Source of the DNA: Flavobacteriales bacterium
GTDB lineage: Bacteria > Bacteroidota > Bacteroidia > Flavobacteriales > Flavobacteriaceae
DNA length: 64,000 bases
Direction: 5' to 3'
NCBI GenBank assembly: GCA_027067965.1
Contig: JAMOUV010000032.1
Location: 178,315-242,314, forward strand
The notes beneath the pieces were generated by a model. It did not search any database. It saw only the letters and a program-made list of their open reading frames with translations, and was not told the DNA's origin. Below, piece by piece: positions 6,439 through 64,000 of this stretch. The position numbers and the translations under genes were made by a program. Within the stretch, counting starts at the first letter, position 1. The number at the start of each line of letters is the position of its first letter.

Positions 6439-6444
6439 ATGAAG

Positions 6445-7458
6445 TTAAATTAAAATTTGTTCTTTTATAATTTTTGAAGCAGCTTCCTTTGAAAAATATT
6501 TTTTTAATTTATTTCTTCGTTTTTCTAAAATTTGTTTAGAAATATTCGGTAATTCATTTACAATAAATTTTTTCATTTCGTCAATGGAATTAAAAGTAAA
6601 TATAAGATTTTCTTTCTCAAAAAAATCCACGCCACTAAATCGTAAAGATAACACTGGCCTTCGACATGCAATAGCTTCTAATGCTACGTTCGGAGTTCCT
6701 TCATTCGTTGAAGTTATAATTAATGCAGAACATTTTGATAAAATAGCCGGGATATTGTTTGTTGATGCAATGAATTGGATAGGTTGATTTTCTGCTTCTT
6801 TTTTGGTTTTATTTAGTAAAGGCCCTTGACCTATCATTATGCCTTTGTAATTGTATTTATTTAAATTTTTTATAAGATTAATAAATAACTCAGGACGCTT
6901 TACGGGAAACATTCTTCCGACAAAACACAATGTTTTGTTATTTTCTTTTGAATTACAATTAAATTTTTCAAAATCAATTATATTAGGTAGAACAATTATA
7001 TTTCTTTTAAAAAAAATCTTTTTTGCATTTGTGGCTCCATGATGGGAATTTGCTACAATTTTATCAGGAAGAGAATAATGTAACCATGAAAAGATTCCAT
7101 TATTCTTTTTTTCTACATATGCATCATTGCGAATGGAACCAATAGAAATACTGTTGGTAAATCTTCCTGCAATAGCACCATAAAAATTGGTGTAAAAATG
7201 AAAGCTATAAATATAATCAGGGCTAAATTCACGTGCTTTTTTTATAACGTCTCTTATTTTTAAAATTTTATTTTTTCTTTGTTTAATATATTCAACATCA
7301 ATACCTATTTTTTTTAATTTATCTTCGTAAAATTCTCCTTGAGTAAAACTTAATAATTTGATACGATATTCTTTATTTAATAAATTAAGGAGGTAATACA
7401 ATTGACGTTCAGCTCCTCCTTGTCCCAATGTACCTGCTATAAATAATATTTTTTTCAT
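6445..7458 (-). CDS. Glycosyltransferase family 4
   Basis: 337 residues with a GT-B fold signature. The N-terminal MKKILFIAGTLGQGGAERQL is the classic GT4 start; the C-terminal half has LCFVGRMFPVKRPELFI and the EX7E motif in TNEGTPNVALEAIACRRPVL. It is a retaining, presumably cytoplasmic, sugar transferase in polysaccharide repeat assembly; donor and acceptor cannot be read from sequence. Its start overlaps the stop of the upstream glycosyltransferase by four bases (ATGA). It is strongly AT-rich compared with the housekeeping genes in the window. Confidence 0.9.
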   Translation of the reverse strand: MKKILFIAGTLGQGGAERQLYYLLNLLNKEYRIKLLSFTQGEFYEDKLKKIGIDVEYIKQRKNKILKIRDVIKKAREFSPDYIYSFHFYTNFYGAIAGRFTNSISIGSIRNDAYVEKKNNGIFSWLHYSLPDKIVANSHHGATNAKKIFFKRNIIVLPNIIDFEKFNCNSKENNKTLCFVGRMFPVKRPELFINLIKNLNKYNYKGIMIGQGPLLNKTKKEAENQPIQFIASTNNIPAILSKCSALIITSTNEGTPNVALEAIACRRPVLSLRFSGVDFFEKENLIFTFNSIDEMKKFIVNELPNISKQILEKRRNKLKKYFSKEAASKIIKEQILI

Positions 7459-8600
7459 TTGAAGTGAAGCATTTTGATGTATTTATTTATTTCTTTTCGC
7501 CATTGTTCCAATGTATAGTTTTTTGAAAATTCAATAGCATGAGCAGCCATTTCAACAAATTTGTTTGGATGATTTATTAAATATTCCACATGTTTAGTAA
7601 TTTCTTCCGGTGATCTTTCTTCTAAAATGAATCCCGCATGAGATTCCGGAATTAAATCTTTCAGCACGGAAACACCGGTGCTTATTACCACATTCCCTTG
7701 GCTCATTGCTTCCATAACAACTTTAGGAAATCCTTCGGTTTTGGAAGGGAAAACAAGTATATCAGTTTTTCTCAACTCCTTTATTATTTCCTCATGAGTT
7801 AATTTTCCGGTGAATAGAATATGATTTTCAATTTGTAATTTTTTAGCCAGATTCTTGAGATAAGGCAAAAAATCCCCATCTCCTATAACTTGTAAGGAAA
7901 TTTTATATTTTTTAGAGAGTTCTTTAATACTACGAATAATAAGATCTGTACCCTTAGATTCGGTTTGTCTTCCTATATGAATTAAATTGGTTTTTTTTTG
8001 AAGAAGACCATAGTTTTTTCTAGGTTTCGAAAGAATTTCGGTTTCAGAAATAGAAGTGGAAAAAATCCAATATATATTCTTATTAGTAGATGGCGGTTTT
8101 TTCCCTCCTCCGGTTGCTAATATGATTCGTTTCGGAGAAGCATATTTTTCCATATATTTTTTCCACATTTTTTCCGCAAGTGTTTTAGTTTTATACCAAT
8201 TCCCCGAATAACGTAATAACATCGGTTTCCCGGTGAGATGAGACATAAAAATTCCTACTGTTCCTACATCCCCTGGAATAATAGGATGAATAAAATCGGT
8301 TTTTAATGTCAGTTTTATAAACAGAGGTAAATAATATAAAAACCAAAAAGGAAAAAAGATTTTACGCCAAATACCTCTCCCGGGAGGTTTTGAAATGGGA
8401 TAAAATTTAATTTTAGGGCTTGTAATAAAAATGGAACCTGATTTATTTTCTTTTTTTATTTCAGGAACTACTAATATTAATTCATCTACGTTTGCTGCAA
8501 CATTATCTATTTGAAATGGGAATCCTCCATCTGTTGCCCATCCTGTCGGAGAATTTTCCATGCGCCAACATTCTTTATGGGAAAAAACTATTGCTTTCAT
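7455..8600 (-). CDS. Glycosyltransferase family 4
   Basis: 381 residues. The N-terminal half is a diverged acceptor domain (MKAIVFSHKECWRMENSPTG). The C-terminal donor domain has LIHIGRQTESKGTDLIIRSI, LQVIGDGDFLPYL, FTGKL and the EX7E motif in SKTEGFPKVVMEAMSQGNVV. A hydrophobic stretch near residue 80 (FFPFWFLYYLPLFI) suggests membrane association. It belongs to the AT-rich leftward polysaccharide operon, 21 bases after the kinase gene, and is coupled to the following glycosyltransferase by a four-base overlap. Sugar specificity unknown. Confidence 0.9.
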   Translation of the reverse strand: MKAIVFSHKECWRMENSPTGWATDGGFPFQIDNVAANVDELILVVPEIKKENKSGSIFITSPKIKFYPISKPPGRGIWRKIFFPFWFLYYLPLFIKLTLKTDFIHPIIPGDVGTVGIFMSHLTGKPMLLRYSGNWYKTKTLAEKMWKKYMEKYASPKRIILATGGGKKPPSTNKNIYWIFSTSISETEILSKPRKNYGLLQKKTNLIHIGRQTESKGTDLIIRSIKELSKKYKISLQVIGDGDFLPYLKNLAKKLQIENHILFTGKLTHEEIIKELRKTDILVFPSKTEGFPKVVMEAMSQGNVVISTGVSVLKDLIPESHAGFILEERSPEEITKHVEYLINHPNKFVEMAAHAIEFSKNYTLEQWRKEINKYIKMLHFK

Positions 8601-8621
8601 CTATTTTCGCCTCTTACTATT

Positions 8622-9560
8622 TTAGGAAATACTTTTATGGAAATTTTTTTCATAAAACAAATTTAATTGATTTATTTTATCATTGGTTAGCTTTCTCCCT
8701 TCCCGTGTTAATAATATAATTTTTGTGTAAATAAGATAATACATTAATTCATTGAAATTTAATTTATAAATGTTGAGAAATTTTTTAATTTCTTGTTGAA
8801 TTAAATTTTCGATGTGCGTTTTCGGCGAATAAAATGACCGAACAATATTGAAATCAAAATAAATGGCATATCCCATAATATTGGATGTAAAATCAAATGA
8901 AACCAATTCTTTTGAATTTGCATATTCCCAATCAATGATTTTAACATGATTATTAGTATCAAAGAAATAATTTCCAATGAAAAAATCTCCATGACTAGCT
9001 GAAACAGGTAAGGGAGAATGAATTACAGCAATATTTTTTAAAAGGTCATTAACAATCTTATTGAGATTTTTTTGATTTGAATATTTTTTTTGTAAAGATT
9101 TGAGAGAAGTGACTATTTCAGTTTTAATATTTTCTGCAGGCCATATTTTTCCTACTGTTTCTTTTTGAAATTTATAGAGCCAATCAAAAGAACTTTTTAT
9201 ATATTGATTTATTTCTTTATGTAATTTTTTTGTGTTTTTAGAGTGATTAATATATTCTTGTATTCTAAAGACATAATCATTCCAATTAATTACTTGAAAT
9301 GAAAAGACAATGGCATTTTTAATTTCGTTTGAATTAATTCTGTTTAAAATGTTTTGCATTATTTCATTTTGTCTTTTCATTAATTGCTTAGAGCTTTTTC
9401 TATAGGTAGAAACAATATAAGAAAGTTTATTCTTATTGGAATAAACATAAAAATGAATCGTATTATTTATATTAGGGTTATATGAATGTTGGACAACATA
9501 CTTAACTTTGTTGTCGTTCAAACGAATGGAATTTATAATAAAATCTATGGCATTATCCAT
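8622..9560 (-). CDS. APH/choline-kinase-fold phosphotransferase
   Basis: 312 residues. The C-terminal lobe holds the aminoglycoside-phosphotransferase/choline-kinase catalytic loop SHGDFFIGNYFF (HGDxxxxN) around residue 200 and the metal-binding HVKIIDWEYANSKE (IIDWE) about 20 residues later, so a functional ATP-dependent small-molecule kinase is plausible. The N-terminal lobe is diverged. Among glycan genes such kinases usually phosphorylate a sugar, choline or ethanolamine; which one cannot be told. It overlaps the preceding methyltransferase-like gene by 8 bases. Very AT-rich. Confidence 0.72.
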   Translation of the reverse strand: MDNAIDFIINSIRLNDNKVKYVVQHSYNPNINNTIHFYVYSNKNKLSYIVSTYRKSSKQLMKRQNEIMQNILNRINSNEIKNAIVFSFQVINWNDYVFRIQEYINHSKNTKKLHKEINQYIKSSFDWLYKFQKETVGKIWPAENIKTEIVTSLKSLQKKYSNQKNLNKIVNDLLKNIAVIHSPLPVSASHGDFFIGNYFFDTNNHVKIIDWEYANSKELVSFDFTSNIMGYAIYFDFNIVRSFYSPKTHIENLIQQEIKKFLNIYKLNFNELMYYLIYTKIILLTREGRKLTNDKINQLNLFYEKNFHKSIS

Positions 9561-10143
9561 TTAAAAATAAAATTTTATCATTCCAATATTTTTTTACTAA
9601 TTGTACACCCAAATTCGATGTAAGCAAATTATATATTAATCGATTTTTCAGTGTTCTTTTTTTTGTATTCTTAAAATTTCGAATGAAGTTAGGATTATCC
9701 GAAATAGTCCAAGGTTTTATAATGGAAGGAAAAACAAATAATTCTTTTTGAATTTTCAAATTGTATGTAGTAAGCAAAAAAGGTAATTTTTGTCGTGGTA
9801 AACCTGAAAATTCATTATTATAGTTTTTATTATAAAAAATTCTACGATAGATTTTATTTAAAACACTACTTTTATATCTATTTACGGGAAGAACAATTAA
9901 GCCGTTTTTTTTTAATAACGAAAAAATAAATTTAGGTAAAATTTCTTCCTTTGACATATCCTTCTTAAAAAAAGGTATATAAATTACATCAAAATGATTA
10001 TATTTATTAAGGGTTGTATTCGAATAATTTTCAATTTCGCAATTTTCCGTACAAATCACTTCAATAAATTCTTGCGAAAATATTAATATTTTTATTTTTT
10101 CTGTTCTATTTACCCAAAAAAGCCAGTCTAAAAATAATTTCAT
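9553..10143 (-). CDS. Short methyltransferase-like protein, possibly truncated
   Basis: 196 residues, not confidently assigned. The segment FDVIYIPFF, then LLKKNGLIVLPVNRYKSSVL, looks like the second half of a class I Rossmann methyltransferase (beta-4 acidic motif followed by the helix and strand after LKPGG). The N-terminal SAM-binding GxGxG half is not visible, so it may be a degenerate or cofactor-less form. It is coupled to the APH-fold kinase (8-base overlap) and follows the pyruvyltransferase-like gene by 17 bases. Strongly AT-rich with many aaa/att/tta codons. It could equally be a lineage-specific protein of unknown fold. Confidence 0.5.
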   Translation of the reverse strand: MKLFLDWLFWVNRTEKIKILIFSQEFIEVICTENCEIENYSNTTLNKYNHFDVIYIPFFKKDMSKEEILPKFIFSLLKKNGLIVLPVNRYKSSVLNKIYRRIFYNKNYNNEFSGLPRQKLPFLLTTYNLKIQKELFVFPSIIKPWTISDNPNFIRNFKNTKKRTLKNRLIYNLLTSNLGVQLVKKYWNDKILFLNG

Positions 10144-10160
10144 TTAATACTTTTTGTTTA

Positions 10161-11201
10161 TTAAAGTATTTGTCTTAGAAATTCGATTTGTTTACTGATT
10201 AAATTATCCAGTTTGTTTCGATCTAATTCAACTAATTCTTTATTTACATTTTCCAATCCTATCCTATCAAATAATTGCTTTCTTGGGGAATTCGAGTATA
10301 AACGAGCCGGTGTATTAAAAATAAGTGAAGCCACACATGCATGCACCCGATCTGTATGCGTCTCTTTAGCATTCGCATATAAATTTAAATAATCATCGGG
10401 TAATTCAGAAATAAGTGTATTAGGTTTTATTAATTGAGATTTAATTTTTTTTCGAGTTTTACTTCCCCAATATGCATTATCTGAATAAAAATTCCATATA
10501 TCATGATGTGCATGGATAATTTTTTTGATACTATTTTTTAATTTAATTTCTTCTTTTTGATCAAAACAAAAGGCAATATAATCGGCATTTGGATTTTTAT
10601 GTGGTTTAAAGTATTTATCTAAAAACCATGCACAATCTATTCCATTATATGCATGTTTAAAATCCATATGAAAAGTTTGATAAGTTTCTTCATCTCGAGA
10701 AATTAAAAGATATGGATTTAATTGTTTGAGAATGGTTTTTACCTCATTAATCTCTTTTGGATTACTATACGTAGTTTCTCCCATACCACCTCCTATGGCA
10801 ATTAATTTAATTCCTTCATCTACTAATTTTTTTAATACTTTATAATGTATTTTTAAAAAGGAAGCTCCGAGACACGTACCATGAATAATAACATAATCAG
10901 CATAATTAGTAAAATCTTGAGTTAAAAAATAAGGTATTGTTGCTTCATAATAGGATTGTGACGGAATAAAACCAAGTATGGCGTTCTTAAAACTTTTTAT
11001 TTTACTTTTAAAAGAATTCTTTGAGAGTTCCAAAGATTGAAGAAACTTCTGTTTTTTCAACAAAGTGGATTGTGGAAATTTGCTTCCATTAATAATCTCA
11101 GCATCAGGGAATGCCATTTTAAGTTGAGCTAAACAACCGTAATCTAGAAAAGCGTTTCCTATATTGGAAATCCAATTCCCTCCATATAATAATATTCTCA
11201 T
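10161..11201 (-). CDS. Polysaccharide pyruvyl transferase family protein
   Basis: 346 residues. It starts MRILLYGGNWISNIGNAFLD, the usual glycine-rich opening of this family (compare GGxxxxNxGD). It has IKLIAIGGGMGE near residue 135, LISRDEETYQTF near 165 and the C-terminal ETHTDRVHACVASLIFNTPA, where the DRxHA-type histidine motif is characteristic. Known members transfer pyruvate from PEP to form ketals on exopolysaccharide sugars; other members have unrelated or unproven activity. It lies 7 bases after the flippase gene in the AT-rich operon. Confidence 0.82.
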   Translation of the reverse strand: MRILLYGGNWISNIGNAFLDYGCLAQLKMAFPDAEIINGSKFPQSTLLKKQKFLQSLELSKNSFKSKIKSFKNAILGFIPSQSYYEATIPYFLTQDFTNYADYVIIHGTCLGASFLKIHYKVLKKLVDEGIKLIAIGGGMGETTYSNPKEINEVKTILKQLNPYLLISRDEETYQTFHMDFKHAYNGIDCAWFLDKYFKPHKNPNADYIAFCFDQKEEIKLKNSIKKIIHAHHDIWNFYSDNAYWGSKTRKKIKSQLIKPNTLISELPDDYLNLYANAKETHTDRVHACVASLIFNTPARLYSNSPRKQLFDRIGLENVNKELVELDRNKLDNLISKQIEFLRQIL

Positions 11202-11208
11202 ACTATGA

Positions 11209-12480
11209 TTATGTTTTTGTTAATTTATTTTTTTGAATTTTGAATAAAATAATTATTGATAATAAAATTAAAATCAGGTTTGTAATAACAAATGACCATG
11301 CAGCTCCTATCACATTAAAATGTTTTACAAGAAAGTACAAAGTTATGAATTTAATTGGTATGGTAATTCCTCTAATAATTGATTTTATTTCGGGTCTGCC
11401 TATTCCTGAATAAAATTTATTAATCAATTGGGAAATACTTAAAAGTAAAGTCCCTATTAATAAAATAACGGCTATTTTATATGCCGGAGCAAATTCTTCT
11501 CCATATACAAAGGGCACCAAAAAATTTCCGAAAGCATAAAACAAAAATATAGCAGGCAATATAAAAAATAAGTTCAGATATATACTTTTTAATAATATGG
11601 TTTTTGCATTATTAATTGTCGAACTTTTAGAAATTTTCGGTAATATAACCACATTTATGGATGAAGGTATAAACATGACCAATTGAGCAATACCCATAGC
11701 AACCGAATAAATCCCTAAATGAGATTTATCAATTAAAGCTGCAAGAATTAATATATCAATTTGTAAGTTTAAAAACATAAAAACATGTCCCAAGTATTCT
11801 TTTAATCCGTATTTTATAGACTCAAGGAATTGTATTTTGTCAAATTTTTGAATACTTACATGTATTTTTTTTAATAAAATATAGCCACTATATAAAACTA
11901 CTGAAAGAATAGAAATTATGGTGGCTATGATGACCCATGCTACTGAAAGTTTTTTTAAAATTAGAAGGACTAACAAAATAACAGTTAAGCGAATGGCGGG
12001 TTGTATTAAGGATGCAAAATTAAATTGTTTATACTTCTCTAATCCCCTAATAAAATGAACAAAAAAATGACGATTCAAAAATAAAAAAATCAATAATAAA
12101 GAAGCAAAAGCTATGATATTATCTACCTTTTCATAATAAGTATTTTTGTAAAAAGGAAAAAGTATCCAAGCAAGAGTAATATAAATAAAGGAACTGACAA
12201 GTATAAAAATTATACTATTGGTGAGTAAAACCGATTTATCCCGACCTTTACCTATAAAATAAATATTAGAGATGGGTAAACCAAGATGCCCGAAAACCGC
12301 GATAGTTTGCGGAATAGACAATGCCGCGGCAACAATACCTTTACCTACAGGACCAAGTTTATGGGCTATAATAATACCTGCCGTTAATCTTAATATATAT
12401 ATCAATATTTTTGTTGAAAAAATCCAACCTATGATATGTAAGGTTGACGAGCGCCAAACTTTATTTCTAATTTGTTTCAA
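11209..12480 (-). CDS. Polysaccharide flippase, Wzx/MATE-like
   Basis: 423 residues with about 12-14 hydrophobic segments spread over the whole length, starting with WIFSTKILIYILRLTAGIII and the conserved HKLGPVGKGIVAAALS loop typical of polysaccharide exporters. It is predicted to flip undecaprenyl-linked repeat units across the inner membrane. It is the first gene of the leftward AT-rich operon. A TATATTTG box lies 24 bases upstream of its start on the minus strand, and wbpD is transcribed divergently from the same spacer. Confidence 0.9.
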   Translation of the reverse strand: MKQIRNKVWRSSTLHIIGWIFSTKILIYILRLTAGIIIAHKLGPVGKGIVAAALSIPQTIAVFGHLGLPISNIYFIGKGRDKSVLLTNSIIFILVSSFIYITLAWILFPFYKNTYYEKVDNIIAFASLLLIFLFLNRHFFVHFIRGLEKYKQFNFASLIQPAIRLTVILLVLLILKKLSVAWVIIATIISILSVVLYSGYILLKKIHVSIQKFDKIQFLESIKYGLKEYLGHVFMFLNLQIDILILAALIDKSHLGIYSVAMGIAQLVMFIPSSINVVILPKISKSSTINNAKTILLKSIYLNLFFILPAIFLFYAFGNFLVPFVYGEEFAPAYKIAVILLIGTLLLSISQLINKFYSGIGRPEIKSIIRGITIPIKFITLYFLVKHFNVIGAAWSFVITNLILILLSIIILFKIQKNKLTKT

Positions 12481-55274: not shown

Positions 55275-55300
55275 TAAATAAAATTTTAAGTGAACTATAA

Positions 55301-55332
55301 ACCGTCTCTTCCTCAAAAGAGGCGGTTTTTTT
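55301..55332 (+). terminator. Rho-independent terminator after rplY
   Basis: Stem accgtctctt (55301-55310) pairs with aagaggcggt (55317-55326), one G-T wobble, 6-base loop, followed by T7. Separates prs-rplY from the nonulosonate locus. Confidence 0.85.
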
Positions 55333-55406: not shown

Positions 55407-56153
55407 ATGTATTCTACAGGCCTCATCATTCAAGCCCGAACCACCTCAACCAGATTGCCAGGCAAGGTGATTTTGCCGTTTGATAATCAGCGGTCTATTT
55501 TGGAAATTCTCATCGACCGGCTAAAAAACCATTTTAATAAAGAAAAAATTATAGTAGCCACCACCACCAATCCGGAAGATGATACCATTGTAGGGCTTTG
55601 TAAAAAAACCAATACCGCTTATTACAGAGGCGACGAAAATAATGTATTGCAACGTTTTATTGAAGCGGCCGAAAAATTCGACATACGAAATATCGTAAGA
55701 ATCAATGCCGATAACCCTTTTTTGCTTCCCGGTTATATCCAAAATTTAATCGACCGGTTCAATGAAGTCGATTATCTTTCTTACTGCTTCGATGACGGCA
55801 CACCGGTCATCAAATCCCACATCGGACTTTTTGCCGAAATGACCCGGTTGGAAACTTTGAAAAAAGTTGCCCGTTTAACCGGCGAACCTCTTTATAGGGA
55901 ACACGTAACCAATTATATTTACTCACACCCGCAGAAATTTAAAATAAACTTATTACCTTTACCCGGCCTCATTAAAAACCGGAAGGATATCCGCTTGACG
56001 GTGGATACAAAAAGAGATTTTGAAATGGCTCGTGAGATTTATAAAAAAACCGGAGAAAAGAATCTCGATATTGAACATTTAATTACACTCATTGACAATA
56101 ATTCCGATTGGAAAACGATTATGTTGAAGGAGATAAAAAATAATGCCAAATGA
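55407..56153 (+). CDS. SpsF-like cytidylyltransferase
   Basis: 248 residues of nucleotidyltransferase fold: GLIIQARTTSTRLPGKVILP with the nucleotide-binding Q-R-S/T-R-x-x-K pattern, IIVATTTNPEDDTIV, YYRGDENNVLQRFIEAAEKF, IVRINADNPFLLPG (metal-binding aspartate) and DIRLTVDTKRDFEMARE. This is the SpsF/NeuA-like branch that activates nonulosonic acids or related sugars with CTP. It overlaps the NeuB-type synthase gene by four bases (ATGA), so it probably makes the CMP-activated form of that enzyme's product. Confidence 0.85.
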   Translation: MYSTGLIIQARTTSTRLPGKVILPFDNQRSILEILIDRLKNHFNKEKIIVATTTNPEDDTIVGLCKKTNTAYYRGDENNVLQRFIEAAEKFDIRNIVRINADNPFLLPGYIQNLIDRFNEVDYLSYCFDDGTPVIKSHIGLFAEMTRLETLKKVARLTGEPLYREHVTNYIYSHPQKFKINLLPLPGLIKNRKDIRLTVDTKRDFEMAREIYKKTGEKNLDIEHLITLIDNNSDWKTIMLKEIKNNAK

Positions 56154-57190
56154 ATCATACCTACATTATCGGAGAGATAGGACAAAATCATAACGGTTCG
56201 GTTGATATTGCCAAATTGATTGTCGATATGGTGAGCCGCCCGATTCGAGAAGAATTTTTCGGGCTTAAATTACCAGGTATTGATGCGGTTAAGCTCACCA
56301 AAAGAGACCTGAAGCAAGAACTATCCTCCACACAGATGAATGCACCTTATGACAGTCCGAATTCTTTTGGCAAAACTTACGGCGAACACAGGGCATACTT
56401 GGAACTTTCGGATGAAGAACACTTTGAAGTATTTAAATATGCCAAGGAAAAAGGATTGGATTTTGTCGAAACCCTTACCGCCCCCGGTGCCATGAGTGTG
56501 CTGAAACTTTTTACCCCGGATTATCTGAAAGTAGCCAGCCGCGATTTGACCAATTTACCGCTTTTGGAAGCATTGGCCGAAACAAAGTTACCCATTATAT
56601 TGTCCACGGGCATGGGCGGAAAAAAAGAATTGGACGAAGCATTGGAAGTCATCACGAGATATCACGATAAGATATCCATTCTGCATTGTGTGTCACAATA
56701 CCCCACCCACCCCAAAAACGTGAATTATAATACCATACCCTACCTCATTAAAAATTATCCGCAATATACCATCGGATATTCCGATCATACCATAGGCATC
56801 TTAGCCCCCTCGATAGCCGTGGCACTCGGTGCCAAGATAATAGAAAAACACGTAACCATCGACCGCCGAATGAAAGGGACCGACCATGCCGTCTCACTCG
56901 GGCCCGATGGTGTAAATAGAATGATTCGAGATATCCGGTTGACGGAAATGGGAATGGGCGAAGAGGATATTTTTATTGTGGACGATATTAAAAGCGCTCA
57001 AGTAAAATTGGAAAGAAGCATTGCATCCAAAAGACCAATCAAAGCGGGAGAAATCATTACGGAAAAAGATATTCATATGCTCTCGCCGGGTGATGGAATT
57101 AAATGGCGCGACAGACACCTAGTTATCGGAAAAAGAGCAATCAAAGATATTCCGAAAGACGAAATCATTTACAAACACCTAATCGAATAA
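56150..57190 (+). CDS. NeuB/SpsE-type nonulosonic acid synthase
   Basis: 346 residues. The TIM-barrel NeuB domain has YIIGEIGQNHNGSVDIAKLI, AVKLTKRDL (catalytic-site lysines), KYAKEKGLDFVETLTAPGAM, YLKVASRDLTNLPLLEAL, IILSTGMGG, ILHCVSQYPT and IGYSDHTIGILAPSIAVALG, with EKHVTIDRRMKGTDHAVSLG before the C-terminal antifreeze-like SAF domain (KRPIKAGEIITEKDIHML). It condenses PEP with an N-acetylhexosamine-type or hexose-type aldose to give a nine-carbon 2-keto acid. The exact sugar (Neu5Ac, KDN, legionaminate, pseudaminate) is not fixed by these motifs. It lies between a cytidylyltransferase and a KdsC-like phosphatase. Confidence 0.9.
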   Translation: MNHTYIIGEIGQNHNGSVDIAKLIVDMVSRPIREEFFGLKLPGIDAVKLTKRDLKQELSSTQMNAPYDSPNSFGKTYGEHRAYLELSDEEHFEVFKYAKEKGLDFVETLTAPGAMSVLKLFTPDYLKVASRDLTNLPLLEALAETKLPIILSTGMGGKKELDEALEVITRYHDKISILHCVSQYPTHPKNVNYNTIPYLIKNYPQYTIGYSDHTIGILAPSIAVALGAKIIEKHVTIDRRMKGTDHAVSLGPDGVNRMIRDIRLTEMGMGEEDIFIVDDIKSAQVKLERSIASKRPIKAGEIITEKDIHMLSPGDGIKWRDRHLVIGKRAIKDIPKDEIIYKHLIE

Positions 57191-57192
57191 AC

Positions 57193-57711
57193 ATGTTACC
57201 CAAACTTATTCTTACGGACATTGACGGCGTATGGACCGACGGCGGAATGTATTATGACAATACGGGAAATGAGTTGAAAAAATTTAATACCTATGATAGT
57301 GCAGGTGTATTATTTTGTAAACTCATGGATATTACATTCGGTATTATCACGGGCGAAAAAAACAAAATAATAGAAAACAGAGCCAAAAAATTGGAAGTCG
57401 AATATGTGTTTACGGGTGTTCGAGATAAGGTGAAAGTAGTGGATGATTTGCTAAATAAATTGGGGCTTACCTACGATGAAGTGGCCTATATCGGTGATGA
57501 TATAAATGATTTGGAATTATTGAAAAAGGTTGGAATCAGTGCGTGTCCGTCCGGCGCACCGGATTATATCAAATCCGAAGTGGATTTTATTGTTTCCAAA
57601 AAAGGAGGCGAAGGGGCATTTAGGGAATTTGTAGAAATTATTTTGAAGGAAAAGGGGTTGCTTCAAGAAGCCCTGCAGCGTTATTTTCAACAGAAGAAAT
57701 TAAATCAATGA
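57193..57711 (+). CDS. KdsC-like HAD phosphatase (nonulosonate-9-phosphate candidate)
   Basis: 172 residues from the ATG at 57193, 2 bases after the synthase. Type C0 HAD phosphatase: nucleophile motif LILTDIDGVWTDGGMYYD, SAGVLFCKLM, GIITGEKNKI (motif II threonine), the lysine in GVRDKVKVVDDLL (motif III) and VAYIGDDINDLELLKKVG (motif IV), with SACPSGAPDYIK. It looks like KDO-8-phosphate phosphatase, but its neighbour is a nonulosonate synthase, not kdsA. Close relatives in Bacteroides dephosphorylate KDN-9-phosphate, which would fit a pathway going through a 9-phosphate. Confidence 0.88.
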   Translation: MLPKLILTDIDGVWTDGGMYYDNTGNELKKFNTYDSAGVLFCKLMDITFGIITGEKNKIIENRAKKLEVEYVFTGVRDKVKVVDDLLNKLGLTYDEVAYIGDDINDLELLKKVGISACPSGAPDYIKSEVDFIVSKKGGEGAFREFVEIILKEKGLLQEALQRYFQQKKLNQ

Positions 57712-57715
57712 TTTT

Positions 57716-58951
57716 TTGAAAAAAAAAATTTCTTTATATAAATTATTAAATTTATTTCTGCGTGCAGCCGGAATGGGCGCAAAGTTTGTTTTAATTCTAT
57801 TATTATCAAAATATTATACTGATACCGATTATCGTGATCTTACCTTAATTATGACTTTTGTTACACTCTCAATATATGTTATCGGAGTGGATTTTTATAA
57901 TTATAGCATTCGTGATATTTTAATGGGGAACGAACAGGATGGATTACAAAAAGTGGTCAATTCCTTTTTTTTATACGGCATCATTTATATTATTTTCGGT
58001 ATTCTTTATTATTTGTTTTTCGACTCATTGGATTTTATCAATCAATACGCTTTGGCAGTTTTTGTCATTGCTCTAACCGAACATCTTTCTCAAGAAATTT
58101 ACCGGCTTTTGATAGCTTTCGGCAAGGTATTATTAGCCAATTTTATTTTATTTTTTCGACTTTTCGGATGGGTAAGTTATGTGATTTATTATATACAATT
58201 CAAAGGAAGCATATCTCTTCATCATCTACTCACCATATGGTATATTTTTAATTTAATAAGCATCATCACAGTAGCCCTTTATTTCGGAATAAAAAATATT
58301 AAACAAATACTTACGGTTAAAATCAAAAAGAAATGGATTATTAACGGACTTAAAATTTCCAGTGTATTTTTTGCAGGCACCATTTTATTAAAAATCATCG
58401 AATACGCCAATCGCTTTGTAGTGGATTATTTTTTGGATGATATATATGTAGGGATATACGGATTTTATACAACCATAGCCCTTATAGTTACTATTTATAT
58501 TAACACAATTGTTATATCTTTTGAATTACCCTCACTTATAAAAAACACTCCCAAAGATCCCGGTTTATCTAACTTCGCTTATTTTAGAAGATCTATAATC
58601 AAACAGTTGATAATTATTATTTTTATTCTTTCCCTCTTTATTTATCCTCTGTTACAATGGCAAGGAAAAAGTGTATATAGCAAGCATATATCTGTCTTTT
58701 TTATTGTGCTGGGAGGTGTATTTTTTATGAATTTATCATTGGTAGAACATTTCATGTTATATGTTAAACATCAGGACAAACGAATATTATACATAATGGT
58801 TATTTCGGGAATTTTCAGTTTATTTTCCGCAATAATTTTAACTTATGTGGCAGGAATTTACGGAACGGCAATTTCTTTTTTTATAACCGGTGTATTGATG
58901 TATTATCTTCGTAAATATGAAGTGAGAAAAATGAAGCTACCCTTTAATTAA
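57716..58951 (+). CDS. Polysaccharide flippase-like membrane protein
   Basis: 411 residues with about 12 hydrophobic segments (LRAAGMGAKFVLILLLSKYY, LTLIMTFVTLSIYVIGVDFY, SGIFSLFSAIILTYVAGIYG and others). The overall pattern fits Wzx/MATE polysaccharide exporters, including the YIYVGIYGFY-like central segment (DDIYVGIYGFYTTI). The start is a TTG at 57716, 4 bases after the phosphatase stop; the next internal ATG would cut into the first helix. Presumably exports the nonulosonate-containing repeat unit. AT-rich. Confidence 0.82.
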   Translation: MKKKISLYKLLNLFLRAAGMGAKFVLILLLSKYYTDTDYRDLTLIMTFVTLSIYVIGVDFYNYSIRDILMGNEQDGLQKVVNSFFLYGIIYIIFGILYYLFFDSLDFINQYALAVFVIALTEHLSQEIYRLLIAFGKVLLANFILFFRLFGWVSYVIYYIQFKGSISLHHLLTIWYIFNLISIITVALYFGIKNIKQILTVKIKKKWIINGLKISSVFFAGTILLKIIEYANRFVVDYFLDDIYVGIYGFYTTIALIVTIYINTIVISFELPSLIKNTPKDPGLSNFAYFRRSIIKQLIIIIFILSLFIYPLLQWQGKSVYSKHISVFFIVLGGVFFMNLSLVEHFMLYVKHQDKRILYIMVISGIFSLFSAIILTYVAGIYGTAISFFITGVLMYYLRKYEVRKMKLPFN

Positions 58952-58999
58952 TTTCCTTTATTTTTAAAAAAAACTCTATCCTCAAACTTTAATTAATGG

Positions 59000-59007
59000 T
59001 ATATTTG
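59000..59007 (+). promoter_or_regulatory. -7 box within the nonulosonate locus
   Basis: TATATTTG, exact TAnnTTTG, 27 bases before the ATG at 59035, after an 83-base AT-rich gap. The transferase, polymerase and later genes may have their own promoter. Confidence 0.55.
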
Positions 59008-59034
59008 TAAAAGAAGTATTTATAATTAGAATTT

Positions 59035-60063
59035 ATGCCGAAAACCAAGCAGATAAATATATTCGTGGGATTATCACAAAATCAAGTAGATAATTTCGAA
59101 CTCGTTATCAAACAAACCGGGATTGAACATGAACATAATATTTTACTTACTTCGAGTTCCATTTCATATAATCCACAAATATACAAGGAAGTTTATCAAG
59201 CCGATATAAGTTTTGATAACCAATCGGGTAATACTTTTCAAGCCATTAGAAACATTCATCAAAAAATCAGGGCATATAAAAAATTAATACAAAAAATTAA
59301 ATCGTTTAAATCTGAAAAAAAAATTCGGGTTTATTTCTCTTATATTGAAGATGTTCTTTCAAATCATATGGTTTTATCATTTAACAAAAATACCCGTGCC
59401 ATCGTAGTGGAAGACGGTATTTTGAATTATTATATGCATACTATTCACAATTTGCCACGTCATAAGATATTACTTAAATACTTGATTTCCAACTTAAATG
59501 GTGTTCGATTCAAGTTTTATAAAGGTCATTCGTCCGGAATCGATTATGCGCATGTCGAAAAACAATATGTGCGACTTCCAGAATTAAGTGTGAAGCCCGA
59601 AAAATCCGAAAAACTTCAAGTACCACCTATTTTTATTGAAAATTTTAGCGATTCAGCTATTATCATAGGGAAAGAAGAATTGGAAGGAAAAATTGGTAGT
59701 GAACAATATTATTCCAAAATGAATCTTTTGTTTGACAAAGCCATTGAATTGGCAAAAAACAAAAAAATTAAAAAAATTTATTATAAACCACACAGGCACG
59801 GCAAAAGATTATCCGAAGAATTTATTAAAACAAAACTGCAATCTATTCCTTATGAAATTTTAAATGCCTCGGCACCTTTAGAGAATTTATTTTTCAATCA
59901 ATTACGTTCAAAATATATTATCGGATTTAATTCCAGCGCAATTATTAACATCAAAATTCAATTAAAAAATGCAAACGAATTAAAGACTTATGTATTTATG
60001 GAAAAAGATGACATATTGCGAAATCTATTCAAAAAATTAAACAGTAATATTTTAGAGATGTAA
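59035..60063 (+). CDS. Candidate sialyltransferase-like GT-B glycosyltransferase
   Basis: 342 residues that I do not recognise as a named family by overall sequence. Three features recall bacterial sialyltransferases (GT38/GT52/GT80 type). IVVEDGILNYY (EDG at 126-128) matches the D/E-D/E-G motif. IYYKPHRHGKR (K251 to G256) sits where the K-P-H-P motif would be, with arginine in place of the second proline. IIGFNSSAIINI (S300-S301) matches the serine motif. No signal peptide or membrane span. It follows the nonulosonate synthesis genes and flippase and precedes the polymerase, where the linking transferase is expected. Specificity and family are inference. Confidence 0.62.
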   Translation: MPKTKQINIFVGLSQNQVDNFELVIKQTGIEHEHNILLTSSSISYNPQIYKEVYQADISFDNQSGNTFQAIRNIHQKIRAYKKLIQKIKSFKSEKKIRVYFSYIEDVLSNHMVLSFNKNTRAIVVEDGILNYYMHTIHNLPRHKILLKYLISNLNGVRFKFYKGHSSGIDYAHVEKQYVRLPELSVKPEKSEKLQVPPIFIENFSDSAIIIGKEELEGKIGSEQYYSKMNLLFDKAIELAKNKKIKKIYYKPHRHGKRLSEEFIKTKLQSIPYEILNASAPLENLFFNQLRSKYIIGFNSSAIINIKIQLKNANELKTYVFMEKDDILRNLFKKLNSNILEM

Positions 60064-60066
60064 AAC

Positions 60067-61329
60067 ATGAGTTTTTATTTCAATATATTATTTGCCATTA
60101 TTTTACTAATCATTACTTTTTGGTTTTTAAAAAGAGATTTTAAACTCTTTTTTTTAAACGGGTTGATTATTTTTCAAGCATTTACCATCATACCTTCTCT
60201 TATTTACATAGAGACAGGAAAAATGATTTCCGAACAAGGAAGAGAAGGATTTTATGTGGGAGCCGTATTTTATTTCGGATTATTTTATTTACTTTCGCTT
60301 CTATTTTTATACTTGACTTTTAATACGCTTTATAAAGTAAAATTAAGAACCTTCTATTTTACATACCATGGAAAAAATATTGAAATACCCGTACTGCTCG
60401 GCTTGGTAATAATGGCTCTAGGGCTATTGATATATAATGCACTTCAGTCACCTTCTCCTTTATTCAATGAAGGCATAAGTCGTTTCAATTATTGGGAACA
60501 TGCCAAATACCCTGTTCTTAATAAATTATTCGGTAATACCGCTATGTTCATACCCTTTGCATTGGGTATATTATTTACCAGAATGAAAAAAATCAGTCTA
60601 TTTCTTCTCCTATTGTATTTCGGTTACAATTTCTACATCGGTCAAAAATTCTCGCCCATCATAAATGGCACATTTGCCTTTTTACTTCCCCTGGCTATTT
60701 TATATGATAATAAAATTTTCTTAAGAACATTAATTAATAAACGAACCTTAATTTTAGTTGCGCTTATGGGACTATTAATGTATAAAGTTATTTACGAACG
60801 ATATGAGAGGGTTCATCCTTTTGCGATAATAAAAATTTACGATCCTAACGAAGCAATGTTCTATAGGATTTTCGGCTTGCAAGGGCATTTGTTTTGGGGA
60901 GCCACCGAACGCTATGTTTATCATCATAAATCCCCTTCATGGGATTTGGCCTCTTTACCATACGGCATGCATGTGATGATGAAAGAATTTGCAGCCGGAG
61001 GTGAAAAATTTGCCGAACAGGCAGCCAAAAAAGGATTTAATTTTACCAATGCCTATCCAAGCATTCTTTTTATGATTTTTCCGCCTTTGGTCGCTTATCT
61101 TTTCCATATTTTCATCGTCATTTTTGTCTTAAGTGTAAGCGGTTGGATATTAATGCGTTTACTTCAAAATCAATCTTATGTTCTAGCTGTGATTTCCTTT
61201 CAATTTTTTATCTGGACAATTTATGCCTTAACAATGGGATATTTTTACAAACTGATATTCGGACTTATATTTAATTTCATTATCCTATTAATGGGTGCAT
61301 ATTTCGAAAGAAAGAAAATTTATTCATGA
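60067..61329 (+). CDS. O-antigen/capsule repeat unit polymerase (Wzy-like)
   Basis: 420 residues with about 10-12 membrane segments (FNILFAIILLIITFWFL, FYVGAVFYFGLFYLLSLLFL, VLLGLVIMALGLLIY, FPPLVAYLFHIFIVIFVLSV) and a large non-membrane loop at about residues 255-325 (RVHPFAIIKIYDPNEAMFYR onward, then HHKSPSWDLASLPYGMHVMM). This layout matches oligosaccharide repeat-unit polymerases, whose sequences are poorly conserved. It would join repeat units in the periplasm. 3 bases after the candidate sialyltransferase; its stop overlaps the next ATG by four bases. Confidence 0.75.
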   Translation: MSFYFNILFAIILLIITFWFLKRDFKLFFLNGLIIFQAFTIIPSLIYIETGKMISEQGREGFYVGAVFYFGLFYLLSLLFLYLTFNTLYKVKLRTFYFTYHGKNIEIPVLLGLVIMALGLLIYNALQSPSPLFNEGISRFNYWEHAKYPVLNKLFGNTAMFIPFALGILFTRMKKISLFLLLLYFGYNFYIGQKFSPIINGTFAFLLPLAILYDNKIFLRTLINKRTLILVALMGLLMYKVIYERYERVHPFAIIKIYDPNEAMFYRIFGLQGHLFWGATERYVYHHKSPSWDLASLPYGMHVMMKEFAAGGEKFAEQAAKKGFNFTNAYPSILFMIFPPLVAYLFHIFIVIFVLSVSGWILMRLLQNQSYVLAVISFQFFIWTIYALTMGYFYKLIFGLIFNFIILLMGAYFERKKIYS

Positions 61330-62333
61330 ATCATGTGAATTTCATATTATCCATACTTTTTCTTTTCTCGTATTTCTATTCATGTAACAGATCCCAAGAA
61401 AAACTTTCTGCGAATTTTGATACCAATTTAGAAAAAAAACTAAGTATCAATAGAGAATTTCATATAGGAGATGTGCGAAGATACGGACTCTTTCCTGAGA
61501 AATCCGATAAACAAAATATTTATAATAAAACCCAAAATCCTGAAGCTATTTTTCGGTTGGCATCTACCGGACTTAAGATTTATTTTCCGCCTGGCTATTA
61601 CAATCATGCATTAATATTGGAAAACATCAAAAATATTAATCTTTATTTTAATCACGCAGAATTCGGCAGTGTTATTCAAATTAAAAATGCCGAAAATATT
61701 CATATCGAAGGCCACTTTATATCTTATAACATGCTGGAAATCAATCGTTCTAAAAAAATTTTTCTGGATACTATACAAATAATCAATAACCCGTCATTAC
61801 ATTCGGGAAGAAGAGAAAGCAGCGGAATACAGATCTTGTATAACAGTTCCGATATTCATATTCATTATGCACAAATCTATGGATTGGGTTCGGGAAAAAA
61901 TTTTAAATATATCCATGCCGCCTTAAAAATCTATGGTTATCCCGAACTTCCCCAAGATGTATATATAGATAAAGTCATTATCAAAAATTCCGCCGTTCAT
62001 GGTGCAATTATTATGGGACATCATATTATTATCAATAAAATGATTATTGACGGCTATGGAATGAAGCCAAATAATTATTTAATAAAATTAAGTCATGTTA
62101 GCGACATGCCAAAAAATTATTATGCTTTATGGTTACAAAAAAATACGCTTTCGGAATATACTTTCATCGAAATACCTAAAGTCAATCGTAAGGCCATGCG
62201 ACTCGGACCGGGAAATATATACCAACCTACCTTAATAGATACCCTATCAATTAACTATCACGGAAATTTAGACGAAATTATAGATGATGATAAAAATACT
62301 AACATTATAGTAAAACATGTTATAATCCATTGA
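61326..62333 (+). CDS. Right-handed beta-helix lipoprotein-like protein
   Basis: 335 residues. N-terminal SILFLFSYFYSCNRSQEKLS looks like a signal peptide with a weak lipobox (FYSC). The body has successive short beta-repeats rich in I/N/H, such as ALILENIKNINLYFNHAEFG, NAENIHIEGHFISYN, SSDIHIHYAQIYGLG and HHIIINKMIIDGYG, the spacing of a right-handed parallel beta-helix (pectate-lyase-like). Such proteins in glycan loci are lyases, epimerases or binding proteins; no catalytic site is obvious. Coupled to the polymerase gene (ATGA) and 4 bases before the ligase-like gene. Confidence 0.65.
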   Translation: MNHVNFILSILFLFSYFYSCNRSQEKLSANFDTNLEKKLSINREFHIGDVRRYGLFPEKSDKQNIYNKTQNPEAIFRLASTGLKIYFPPGYYNHALILENIKNINLYFNHAEFGSVIQIKNAENIHIEGHFISYNMLEINRSKKIFLDTIQIINNPSLHSGRRESSGIQILYNSSDIHIHYAQIYGLGSGKNFKYIHAALKIYGYPELPQDVYIDKVIIKNSAVHGAIIMGHHIIINKMIIDGYGMKPNNYLIKLSHVSDMPKNYYALWLQKNTLSEYTFIEIPKVNRKAMRLGPGNIYQPTLIDTLSINYHGNLDEIIDDDKNTNIIVKHVIIH

Positions 62334-62337
62334 ATTA

Positions 62338-63528
62338 ATGAATAGAGAAAAGATTTTTACCGCATTACTGATGCTTTATACCTTGTTGCTCTCCACCACA
62401 TTTCTTGCCGGTGGGGCCATTTTGTTAATGCTTATCTTTTTTTTAATCGACCGCAAAGAAAATCTTCGCAAGAAATGTAAAATTGCATGCAACCATCCTT
62501 TAACAATCTTGTTTATTATATATTTCCTATTTCATATTGTAGGATATTTTATGTCCAAAGACAAATCAATGGCCTTAACGGATATAGAACATAAATTATC
62601 ATTTTTAATTTTACCTCCGATTATTTTAGGCGAGTATATTTCCAAAAATAATATCAAAAAAGTATTTCTATTCTTTAAAAACGTAATAATAATTACGCTC
62701 TCCGTTTTGCTTATGTATCATTTTATTCGTTACAATAAAGGGCTCGGAGAATTTACACATTTCGGATTTAGAGATTTAAGCATTTCATATTTCTATTTTT
62801 CGGTTTTTATTATTTTTTCCATTTTAATTATTGATTATTTTAAACCTAAATATTATAAATTTCAAATACTCATCCTTCTTTTCTTTTTATTATTGATTTC
62901 GAATAGAGCTGCTATTTTATTCATATTATTTTATTATATTTTCTGGAAAAAAGGTTATAAATTTTTATTGAATATCAGGGTGGTTTTTATTTTGGTTTTG
63001 CTTGGCTTATTTCTTTTTTCAACCGATAACCTTCTTATTCGAAAAATGAAAGTATTCTATCGTACAACCGACCTGAACATGGAAACAATTAGAACTAAAA
63101 ACAGTATAAGCATTACTCATAACACGTTAGAACATCGTATTTATATATGGAAATTGGCAAGTTCGCTTATTAAAGAAAACTTTTTATTTGGAATAGGAAC
63201 CGGCGATTTTCAAAAAGAACTTAACAAATTATATCATCAGTATAACTTTAAAGCCGCCAAACTTAAAAATTACAATACCCATAATCAGTATTTGGAAGAA
63301 TTTTTAAAATTCGGTCTCATAGGAGGATTGTTTTTCATAGGGATGATATGGTATTTACTAAAAATCAGCCGGCGAAAACCTCTTTTTTTCCTTACCGTAT
63401 TACTTATAGCATGGGGGAGCATTTTCGAATCATACTGGTTCAGACACCATGGTATTCTTTTTATAAGTTTTTTTATTCCTTTATTGTATAAATATTATTT
63501 ACCAAACAATGTACTTGATGAAAAATAA
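62338..63528 (+). CDS. O-antigen ligase/polymerase family (Wzy_C/WaaL-like)
   Basis: 396 residues, about ten hydrophobic segments (FTALLMLYTLLLSTTFLAGG, FILLPPIILGEYI-type region near residue 90, FQILILLFFLLLISNRAAIL). The diagnostic periplasmic loop and following helix are visible: EHRIYIWKLASSLIKENFLF, GIGTGDFQKELN, then YNTHNQYLEEFLKFGLIGGL, where the H-N-x-x-L motif of the Wzy_C domain is intact. It is either the ligase that joins the polymer to lipid A core or a second polymerase. The next glycosyltransferase overlaps its 3' end by 11 bases. Confidence 0.85.
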   Translation: MNREKIFTALLMLYTLLLSTTFLAGGAILLMLIFFLIDRKENLRKKCKIACNHPLTILFIIYFLFHIVGYFMSKDKSMALTDIEHKLSFLILPPIILGEYISKNNIKKVFLFFKNVIIITLSVLLMYHFIRYNKGLGEFTHFGFRDLSISYFYFSVFIIFSILIIDYFKPKYYKFQILILLFFLLLISNRAAILFILFYYIFWKKGYKFLLNIRVVFILVLLGLFLFSTDNLLIRKMKVFYRTTDLNMETIRTKNSISITHNTLEHRIYIWKLASSLIKENFLFGIGTGDFQKELNKLYHQYNFKAAKLKNYNTHNQYLEEFLKFGLIGGLFFIGMIWYLLKISRRKPLFFLTVLLIAWGSIFESYWFRHHGILFISFFIPLLYKYYLPNNVLDEK

Positions 63529-64000
63529 AGAAAAGAAAATAAAAATTCTTCATGTAGCTCGGGCTGCCGGCGGAATCGGTGTATATATCGATCTGATAGT
63601 AAAACATATAAACGACGAAAGATTTAAAAATTATATTATTCATGAAGACGATTATCAATCCATAAGTTTTGCATCAAAATCCGGTCTTCCGGTCAAGTCC
63701 TATAAATTACCCATTCCAAGGGAAATTTCGCCAAGGAAAGATTGGCAAGCCGTTCTAAAAACCCGTAAAATAATCGAAGAAGAAAATATCGATTTAATTC
63801 ATGCCCATAGTGCCAAAGGCGGGGTAATTGCGCGCCTTGCCGCTTTAGGAAAAGGAGTAAAAGTACTTTATACTCCTAATGCATTCTCCTATCTGAGTAC
63901 GCCGAATACGATAAAAAAATTTATTTTCTTAAATGCCGAGCGAATACTCAAACATTTTAATTCCAAATTATTAGCTTCTTCTCCTTCCGAACAAGAAAGA
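63518..64000 (+). CDS. Glycosyltransferase family 4, N-terminal part
   Basis: 161 codons before the right edge cuts the gene. It starts MKNKEKKIKILHVARAAGGI (an ATG three codons upstream at 63509 is also possible) and has the GT4 N-terminal pattern: ARAAGGIGVYIDLIVKHI (glycine-rich loop), IEEENIDLIHAHSAKGGVIA (HAHSAKGG acceptor-domain motif) and LLASSPSEQER, the usual position of the ASxxE-type hinge. The donor domain is off the edge. It extends the nonulosonate polysaccharide locus beyond the window. Confidence 0.88.
   Translation, partial: MKNKEKKIKILHVARAAGGIGVYIDLIVKHINDERFKNYIIHEDDYQSISFASKSGLPVKSYKLPIPREISPRKDWQAVLKTRKIIEEENIDLIHAHSAKGGVIARLAALGKGVKVLYTPNAFSYLSTPNTIKKFIFLNAERILKHFNSKLLASSPSEQER

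What the first reader, a model, noticed from the sequence alone, without database searches (positions are those of the whole stretch)
55407..60063. Nonulosonic-acid polysaccharide locus with an unfamiliar candidate sialyltransferase
Synthase, phosphatase and cytidylyltransferase for a nine-carbon sugar are followed by a flippase and a 342-residue protein that I cannot place in a known family. It has an EDG motif, a KPHRHG segment and an NSSA segment in the order and spacing of bacterial sialyltransferase motifs. The replacement of the second proline of the KPHP motif by arginine suggests a diverged branch. If correct, it would be a new bacterial sialyltransferase-type enzyme.
Basis: partly seen in the sequence, partly recalled or inferred. 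Interest (0 to 1): 0.62.

Follow-up and report, generated by a model that had tools for sequence, protein, structure and literature searches.

The report
Divergent polysialyltransferase-like nonulosonic-acid transferase
A flavobacterium carries a gene set for making a nine-carbon acidic sugar (probably KDN) and building it into a surface polysaccharide; the puzzling protein in it is very probably the enzyme that attaches that sugar, a distant branch of a known bacterial polysialyltransferase family whose relatives sit beside gene sets for several different nine-carbon sugars.

Summary
Window 55407-60063 holds a cytidylyltransferase, a NeuB-type synthase, a KDN-9-phosphate phosphatase (over NCBI's cut-off), a flippase-like protein and a 342-residue protein with EDG (126-128), KPHRHG (251-256) and NSSA (299-302). 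Alone, the protein reaches no Pfam or NCBIfam cut-off. It is not without family, though. Its syntenic orthologue (64% identical) passes the PF07388 (alpha-2,8-polysialyltransferase) cut-off. Profile-profile comparison with eight outlying relatives is nearly full length (99.9%, 1e-32). The predicted fold (pLDDT 91) is GT-B, nearest the solved GT38 polysialyltransferase (Z 18.9; next 15.6). The conserved residues align with that enzyme's catalytic base and its phosphate and ribose contacts. Arg after the histidine is the rule in this branch (23 of 29 loci). Of 31 family loci, 28 have a nonulosonic-acid synthase in the DNA held: KDN type 11, pseudaminic type 13, other 4. Donor type switches on the tree, and the window's KDN locus is sister to a pseudaminic one. 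Verdict: very probably a CMP-nonulosonic-acid transferase, a new variant of a known kind, interesting for its donor-module swaps. No activity has been tested.

The parts
55299..55328 (+). terminator-like hairpin that closes the upstream gene; the cluster starts after it
   Evidence: consensus match only; 7 found, mean 6.5 in shuffles
55407..56153 (+). CMP-nonulosonate cytidylyltransferase, 248 aa
   Evidence: PF02348 E 1.2e-28; below the cut-offs of all 8 NCBIfam models listed
56150..57190 (+). NeuB-type nonulosonate synthase with SAF domain, probably KDN-9-phosphate synthase
   Evidence: PF03102 E 1.3e-64 and PF08666; below both the NeuB and the PseI equivalog cut-offs; the only PF03102 match in the genome
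57193..57711 (+). HAD phosphatase, KDN-9-phosphate phosphatase
   Evidence: NF058599 251.2 bits, cut-off 180; start codon read
57716..58951 (+). membrane protein, probable repeat-unit flippase (Wzx-like)
   Evidence: no family hit; a phmmer-detected homologue stands directly upstream of the target in 22 of 31 family loci, the window included; function inferred
59035..60063 (+). the 342-aa protein: probable CMP-nonulosonic-acid (CMP-KDN) glycosyltransferase, GT-B fold
59410..59418 (+). EDG motif, residues 126-128; D127 aligns with the proposed catalytic base E153 of the GT38 enzyme
   Evidence: roles from PMC5517516 (passages)
59785..59802 (+). KPHRHG segment, residues 251-256; H253 aligns with H291 (CMP phosphate), R254 stands where the HP-motif proline is
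   Evidence: roles from PMC5517516 (passages)
59881..59883 (+). E283, invariant in 21 relatives, aligns with the ribose-binding E323
59929..59940 (+). NSSA segment, residues 299-302; S300/S301 align with phosphate-binding S339/T340
60067..61329 (+). DUF6418 multi-spanning protein, candidate polymerase (Wzy-like)
   Evidence: PF19982 64 bits, cut-off 25; a homologue directly downstream of the target in 23 of 31 family loci, the window included; function inferred
61326..62333 (+). 335-aa protein, predicted beta-helix (my reading of the strand pattern); function unknown
   Evidence: no Pfam or NCBIfam hit; AlphaFold2 model on 6 sequences, pLDDT 87.1, mostly strands; no fold search was made
62338..63528 (+). 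O-antigen ligase / Wzy_C-type membrane protein
   Evidence: PF04932 65 bits, cut-off 31.7
63509..64000 (+). GT4-type glycosyltransferase, runs past the window end
   Evidence: full 382-aa ORF in L005:13824-14972; the GT4 label comes from my reading of the sequence and was not scanned against Pfam

Best explanation
The 342-residue protein is the transferase that takes the nonulosonic acid made by the three genes before it (in this genome most likely KDN, as CMP-KDN) and adds it to the growing lipid-linked repeat unit of a surface polysaccharide. The flippase then turns the unit over, and the DUF6418 and Wzy_C-type proteins polymerise or ligate it. By homology to GT38 it should be an inverting GT-B enzyme: D127 of the EDG motif as general base, H253 (helped by S300/S301) holding the CMP phosphate as leaving group, E283 holding the ribose. 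Shown here by computation: gene content, homology, fold, residue correspondence, genomic association. Inferred: activity, donor, inversion, acceptor, order of assembly steps.
For: Syntenic orthologue over the PF07388 cut-off (38.3 against 23.3 bits, residues 10-306). 8 of the 12 members of A2, which were gathered without PF07388, match it at E<=1. Profile-profile against eight outlying relatives 99.9%, E 1e-32, 301 columns, and against eight more remote PF07388 hits 80.8%, E 1.3e-5 over 100 columns of the C-terminal half; control GT4-type profile 0.2%. AlphaFold2 on 12 sequences: pLDDT 91.3, pTM 0.88. Foldseek top hits 5wcn and 5wc6 (GT38 polysialyltransferase), E 5.4e-13 and 4.3e-11, then the Neisseria LOS sialyltransferase. 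VIA-align Z 18.9 and 18.7, next 15.6 and 14.3 (sialyltransferases), with rows that are not sialyltransferases at 14.1 and below. Profile A4 finds 5wcn in the PDB by sequence (E 3.2e-4), aligning EDG, KPH, E283 and SS with E152-E153-G154, K289/H291, E323 and S339/T340 (residue roles). A nonulosonate synthase lies in the DNA held around 28 of 31 distinct family loci, which were found by the protein and not by its neighbours. One synthase and one copy of the target in the own genome.
Against: The window protein itself gives no PF07388 hit at E<=1, and its relatives L026, L053, L054, L056, L058 and L059 give none either. The profile of the 12 rows of A2 finds no glycosyltransferase in the PDB (best E 0.47); only the 21-row profile does, and its next hit is a 70-residue stretch of a teichoic-acid polymerase at E 0.0031. 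The proline of the HP motif is replaced by Arg; alanine there left the meningococcal enzyme below 10% activity in lysates and with a four-fold lower Vmax when purified. Foldseek TM-scores are only about 0.5 and the VIA rmsd is 6.5, so domain orientation or details differ. Three of 31 loci have no synthase in the DNA held: two are cut by contig edges (L057, L059), and in the third (L052) the genome's only PF03102 match, a PseI, is on another contig. No activity, donor or acceptor was measured.
Confidence: 0.8

Rival explanations
1. It is a GT-B enzyme of the same superfamily that uses another CMP-sugar (for example CMP-Kdo) or another nucleotide-sugar, and sits beside nonulosonate genes only because both serve the same polysaccharide.
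For: Lizak et al. state that the HP motif is shared with beta-Kdo transferases (passages), and the KpsC paper says the same (passages). The other glycosyltransferase in the cluster suggests that further sugars are added. In one genome the target block is not linked to the nonulosonate genes (L052/L026).
Against: 28 of 31 loci have the synthase in the DNA held. The closest solved structures and the families hit are CMP-sialic-acid enzymes. The column four places after position 213, which would carry the nucleophilic Asp of retaining Kdo enzymes (QXXXD), is not a conserved acid.
Confidence: 0.12
2. It is a true polysialyltransferase-like polymerase that makes a homopolymer of the nonulosonic acid (poly-KDN), as GT38 enzymes make polysialic acid.
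For: The closest solved relative is a polysialyltransferase.
Against: The neighbours look like those of a flippase/polymerase (Wzx/Wzy-like) route: flippase-like protein, DUF6418, Wzy_C protein and another glycosyltransferase, which a homopolymer synthase would not be expected to need (inference). The acceptor groove was not examined.
Confidence: 0.05
3. A degenerate, inactive paralogue or a non-catalytic subunit.
For: The HP proline is lost; residue 213 is K where most relatives in A2 have Q.
Against: G128, H253, E283 and S300 are invariant in 21 relatives that are as little as 16% identical to the window protein. It is the only copy in the genome, with no other PF07388 match there.
Confidence: 0.03

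Closest known systems
Pfam PF07388 A-2_8-polyST
   Same: Same relationship by sequence: orthologue L004 38.3 bits (cut-off 23.3), L028 25.1, L029 30.4, L032 30.2, L034 55.6, L035 31.8
   Different: The window protein scores below detection, L033 is just below the cut-off (21.8) and six of ten nearer relatives have no match; HR in place of HP; the branch lies beside KDN, pseudaminic and other nonulosonate gene sets
CAZy GT38, Mannheimia haemolytica polysialyltransferase (PDB 5wc6, 5wcn; PMC5517516, passages seen)
   Same: GT-B fold, acidic-acidic-Gly motif, His for the CMP phosphate, Glu for ribose, Ser/Ser where it has Ser/Thr for phosphate
   Different: 14-15% identity; Wzx/Wzy-like gene setting; donor gene set is not that for Neu5Ac; polymer synthesis not indicated
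GT52 LOS sialyltransferases (PDB 2yk4-2yk7) and PF07922
   Same: Second group in Foldseek, prob 1.00; shared motifs as described in PMC2169525 (passages)
   Different: No PF07922 hit for the window protein; 1 of 12 members of A2 (L032, 23.5 against a cut-off of 26.1 bits) and 2 of 21 of A4 touch it
KDN pathway (NF058599 phosphatase; Bacteroides thetaiotaomicron KDN synthesis, seen only as a reference title)
   Same: Phosphatase over the curated cut-off
   Different: The pathway models do not include a transferase; no bacterial KDN transferase appeared in the listings

Membership tests
PF07388 A-2_8-polyST | The window protein scores over the gathering cut-off of 23.3 bits | tested here: not met
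   no PF07388 match at E<=1; none in the whole genome
PF07388 A-2_8-polyST | Nearest relatives over the cut-off (branch-level membership) | tested here: met
   L004 (64% identical, same gene block) 38.3 bits; of 10 relatives scanned 4 are over the cut-off and 6 have no match
PF07388 / bacterial sialyltransferase motifs | D/E-D/E-G motif | tested here: met
   E126-D127-G128. EDG in 30 of 31 family loci, YEG in L035; the count is biased, because one of the two scan patterns contained EDG
PF07388 / bacterial sialyltransferase motifs | HP motif, His and Pro | tested here: not met
   His met, Pro replaced by Arg. Residue after His: R 23, P 3, H 2, Y 1 of the 29 loci that cover it. PMC2169525 (passages) records a natural HA variant and residual activity of P279A
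GT38 | GT-B fold with GT38 as best structural match | tested here: met
   Z 18.9 and 18.7, rmsd 6.5, 305 aligned; next 15.6
GT38 | CMP-site and catalytic residues E153, H291, E323, S339, T340 | tested here: met
   profile alignment of A4 with 5wcn: D127, H253, E283, S300, S301, with Asp for Glu and Ser for Thr; sequence alignment only, no superposition of coordinates
GT38 | Makes alpha-2,8-polysialic acid | not testable with these tools
   needs an assay
GT52 / PF07922 | Score over cut-off | tested here: not met
   no hit for the window protein at E<=1
Retaining beta-Kdo transferases (GT99/GT107) | QXXXD nucleophile | tested here: not met
   Q213 is K in the window protein, and the fourth position after it is E, I, G or H among rows I read; read from alignments, with the correspondence of this Q to the KpsC motif assumed (motif)
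CMP-nonulosonic-acid transferase (function) | Transfers from a CMP-nonulosonate | not testable with these tools
   genomic association 28 of 31 only

The most novel reading that the evidence does not exclude
One transferase scaffold (the HR branch) accepts or easily re-tunes between CMP-KDN and CMP-pseudaminic acid, sugars of different ring stereochemistry (recalled), so that flavobacteria change the acidic sugar of their surface polysaccharide by swapping only the donor-synthesis cassette while keeping flippase, transferase and polymerase. The Arg that replaces the HP proline would be part of a donor site unlike that of known sialyltransferases.
Probability: 0.3. Interest if true: 0.65.

Novelty: new variant of a known kind. 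Interest (0 to 1): 0.4.

Why it matters
Transferases for KDN and pseudaminic acid are less well known than those for Neu5Ac (recalled). A branch whose members lie beside KDN, pseudaminic and other nonulosonate gene sets gives candidates for such activities and a natural test of how donor choice evolves in a bacterial polysialyltransferase-like fold. It also shows that a protein with no family annotation of its own can be placed through its relatives and neighbours.

Tried and rejected
Single-protein searches led nowhere. Pfam gave only below-cut-off rows (best FYRC, E 0.0027), PHROGs only E 0.15 and 0.3, NCBIfam nothing, and the PDB only a dethiobiotin synthetase (E 0.039) and an antibody chain. 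Plasmids and phages gave no match, 395 phylum genomes only the window itself, and the first genome-contig scan nothing. The two-row profile over 397 genomes of the family opened it up. Of its 20 loci I took as real the 10 with E from 1.2e-214 to 1.6e-32 (the window itself included) and L016 (1.7e-6); L017 and weaker rows were dropped. L036, fetched around L017, shows no such gene.

A weak match in congener G396 is a MoxR-type ATPase frame by reading and was rejected. The genome search with PF07922 is uninformative because its control rang nowhere. L095 is a UDP-GlcNAc 2-epimerase-like protein by reading and was left out of A4 and A8. Rows for these alignments were chosen by hand, and 6 of the 21 rows of A4 came from the PF07388 searches themselves, so '17 of 21 match PF07388' is partly circular. 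NCBIfam has no useful model for any A4 member (best E 0.0015, a ribosomal protein). L078 alone finds a Photobacterium sialyltransferase in the PDB only at E 0.013.

Residues that track KDN against pseudaminic loci: 10 columns with disjoint sets, none fixed on both sides. 25 of the 1001 possible partitions of the 14 rows do as well or better, but relatedness is not controlled. I draw nothing from it. The tree used 28 of the 31 loci; L035 (too distant), L065 and L073 (fragments) were left out. The placing of L034 and of the gammaproteobacterial rows is unsure (long branches). The label 'Leg' in that script for L067, L068 and L070 is a guess: the synthases of L068 and L070 are below both NCBIfam cut-offs, and that of L067 was not tested. 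Known Kdo-transferase structures do not appear among the rows shown; this says nothing about them.
Full report
What is there. The window lies in a 2.05-Mb, 33-contig genome (98% complete) whose relatives by match are mostly Flavobacteriaceae and Flavobacteriales. From 55407 runs a forward cluster: cytidylyltransferase, NeuB-type synthase, KDN-9-phosphate phosphatase, flippase-like protein, the 342-residue target, DUF6418 protein, a 335-residue protein, a Wzy_C-type protein and a glycosyltransferase that ends just outside the window. GC falls from about 0.42 at 54-56 kb to 0.29-0.31 at 58-64 kb. The phosphatase is over the curated NF058599 cut-off (251 against 180 bits). The synthase is below the cut-offs of both the NeuB and the PseI equivalog models (253 against 400; 201 against 340), which fits a KDN-9-phosphate synthase (inference).

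Is the target really without a family? Alone, yes: no Pfam or NCBIfam match over a cut-off, and only chance-level rows in PHROGs and the PDB. A syntenic orthologue in one congener (64%, L002/L004) gave a two-row profile, which found relatives in other genera of the family. A second genome-contig scan with ten rows found 27 loci.

Homology. The orthologue in L004 matches PF07388 with 38.3 bits (cut-off 23.3) over residues 10-306. L028, L029 and L032 are also over the cut-off, and the six others of the ten scanned have no match. L034, a distant member with the canonical KPHP, has 55.6 bits; L035 has 31.8 and L033 21.8, the last below the cut-off. Of the 12 members of A2, 8 match at E<=1. Of the 21 of A4, 17 match at E<=0.01, but six of those rows came from PF07388 searches. 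hhalign of the ten-row branch (A3) against eight outlying relatives (A6): 99.9%, E 1e-32, 301 columns. Against eight more remote PF07388 hits (A8): 80.8%, E 1.3e-5, over 100 columns of the C-terminal half. Against the cluster's GT4-type family as control: 0.2%. So the target is an outlying branch of the PF07388 relationship. By Pfam's own rule the window protein is not a member.

Fold and site. AlphaFold2 with 12 sequences: pLDDT 91.3, pTM 0.88. The best PDB match is the GT38 polysialyltransferase (Foldseek E 5.4e-13, TM 0.53/0.48; VIA Z 18.9 and 18.7, rmsd 6.5, 305 aligned), then other sialyltransferases (Z 15.6, 14.3) mixed into a plateau of other enzymes at 14 and below. The A2 profile finds no relative in the PDB by sequence (best E 0.47). 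The broader A4 profile finds the same GT38 entry (E 3.2e-4; the next unrelated row is a 70-residue stretch of TarL at 0.0031). Its alignment puts EDG on E152-E153-G154, KPH on K289-L-H291, R254 on P292, E283 on E323, and S300-S301 on S339-T340 (numbering by my own count, with an offset of 19 between chain index and the paper's numbers). In the paper (passages) E153 is the proposed catalytic base, H291 and S339/T340 contact the phosphate, and E323 the ribose. The invariant columns of A4 are G128, H253, E283 and S300.

The Arg. After the motif histidine, 23 of 29 loci that cover it have R, three have P (L034, L076, L077), two H (L035, L075) and one Y (L074); L058 has KSHR. The His is present in all 29. 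In the meningococcal enzyme P279A kept below 10% activity in lysates but 60% of the capsule signal, and a natural HA variant exists (PMC2169525, passages). The proline is thus helpful but not essential there, and this branch has a nearly fixed alternative. The EDG count (30 of 31) is biased, because one of the two patterns of the scan contained EDG.

Genomic association and donor type. A synthase lies in the DNA held around 28 of 31 loci. L057 and L059 sit at contig edges. In L052 (the same locus as L026) it is not linked; the only PF03102 match of that genome is a PseI, 82% identical to that of L004, on another contig. Types by neighbours: KDN 11, pseudaminic 13, other NeuB-type 4. Five synthases of pseudaminic-type loci that I tested are all over the PseI cut-off; five of the other types are below both cut-offs. 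On the tree of 28 loci the window (KDN) is sister to L051 (pseudaminic) with support 100/99, and L064/L071 (pseudaminic) group with L063 (KDN) at 99/97. The KDN label needs 5 changes, with at least 4 forced by supported branches, though labels are still clustered (8 changes in all against 15.7 in shuffles). Block by block, the window's synthase is 66-70% identical to the ten other KDN-type synthases, while its target is 35-44% identical to theirs (49% to the fragment L065) and 64% to L051's. The donor-synthesis module has therefore been exchanged against a kept flippase-transferase-polymerase core. Whether one enzyme takes both donors, or was re-tuned each time, cannot be told from sequence; no column is fixed by donor type.

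How it probably works. CMP-KDN is made from the sugar precursor by synthase, phosphatase and cytidylyltransferase. The target transfers KDN to a lipid-linked oligosaccharide in the cytoplasm, probably with inversion as in GT38. The flippase exports the unit and the DUF6418 and Wzy_C proteins polymerise or ligate it. The family-level steps are supported by homology; donor, acceptor and stereochemistry are inferences.

Known or new. The listings showed no bacterial KDN transferase, and no pseudaminic-acid transferase assigned to PF07388; the term PF07388 had no occurrence in the 25 papers listed. These were listings of titles and abstract beginnings, cut at 10 to 25 rows. KDN in a bacterial capsule is known from Serratia marcescens (PMC9000132, passages). 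The library holds open-licence papers only, so a published characterisation elsewhere is possible. Verdict: a new variant of a known kind, moderately interesting.

Noticed in passing
window 61326-62333: 335-residue protein without Pfam or NCBIfam match, predicted as mostly strands, like a beta-helix, with an N-terminal hydrophobic stretch and a lipobox-like Cys by reading; homologues in several related clusters (L004, L026, L027, L033, L056). Perhaps a polysaccharide-acting or polysaccharide-binding lipoprotein.
   Followed up: partly
window 5401-12480: A second surface-polysaccharide region of low GC (0.26-0.30 at 6-12 kb), on the minus strand: sugar epimerase, two glycosyltransferases, a kinase-like protein, a pyruvyltransferase-like protein and another flippase (by reading).
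   Followed up: no
L067:7989-9011: The target homologue of an uncultured Muricauda assembly has one in-frame stop shortly after the KPHRNG segment; pseudogene or sequencing error.
   Followed up: no
L026/L052 and L038 (genome G769): The flippase-target-DUF6418 block lies on another contig than the pseudaminic-acid genes.
   Followed up: partly
L073: A fragment of the family beside a PseI in a MAG labelled Planctomycetota (4.2-kb contig): lateral transfer or misbinning.
   Followed up: no
L068:5672-6715: A polysaccharide pyruvyltransferase (PF04230) stands between the synthase and the flippase-sized gene in a non-KDN, non-pseudaminic locus, suggesting pyruvylated repeat units there.
   Followed up: no
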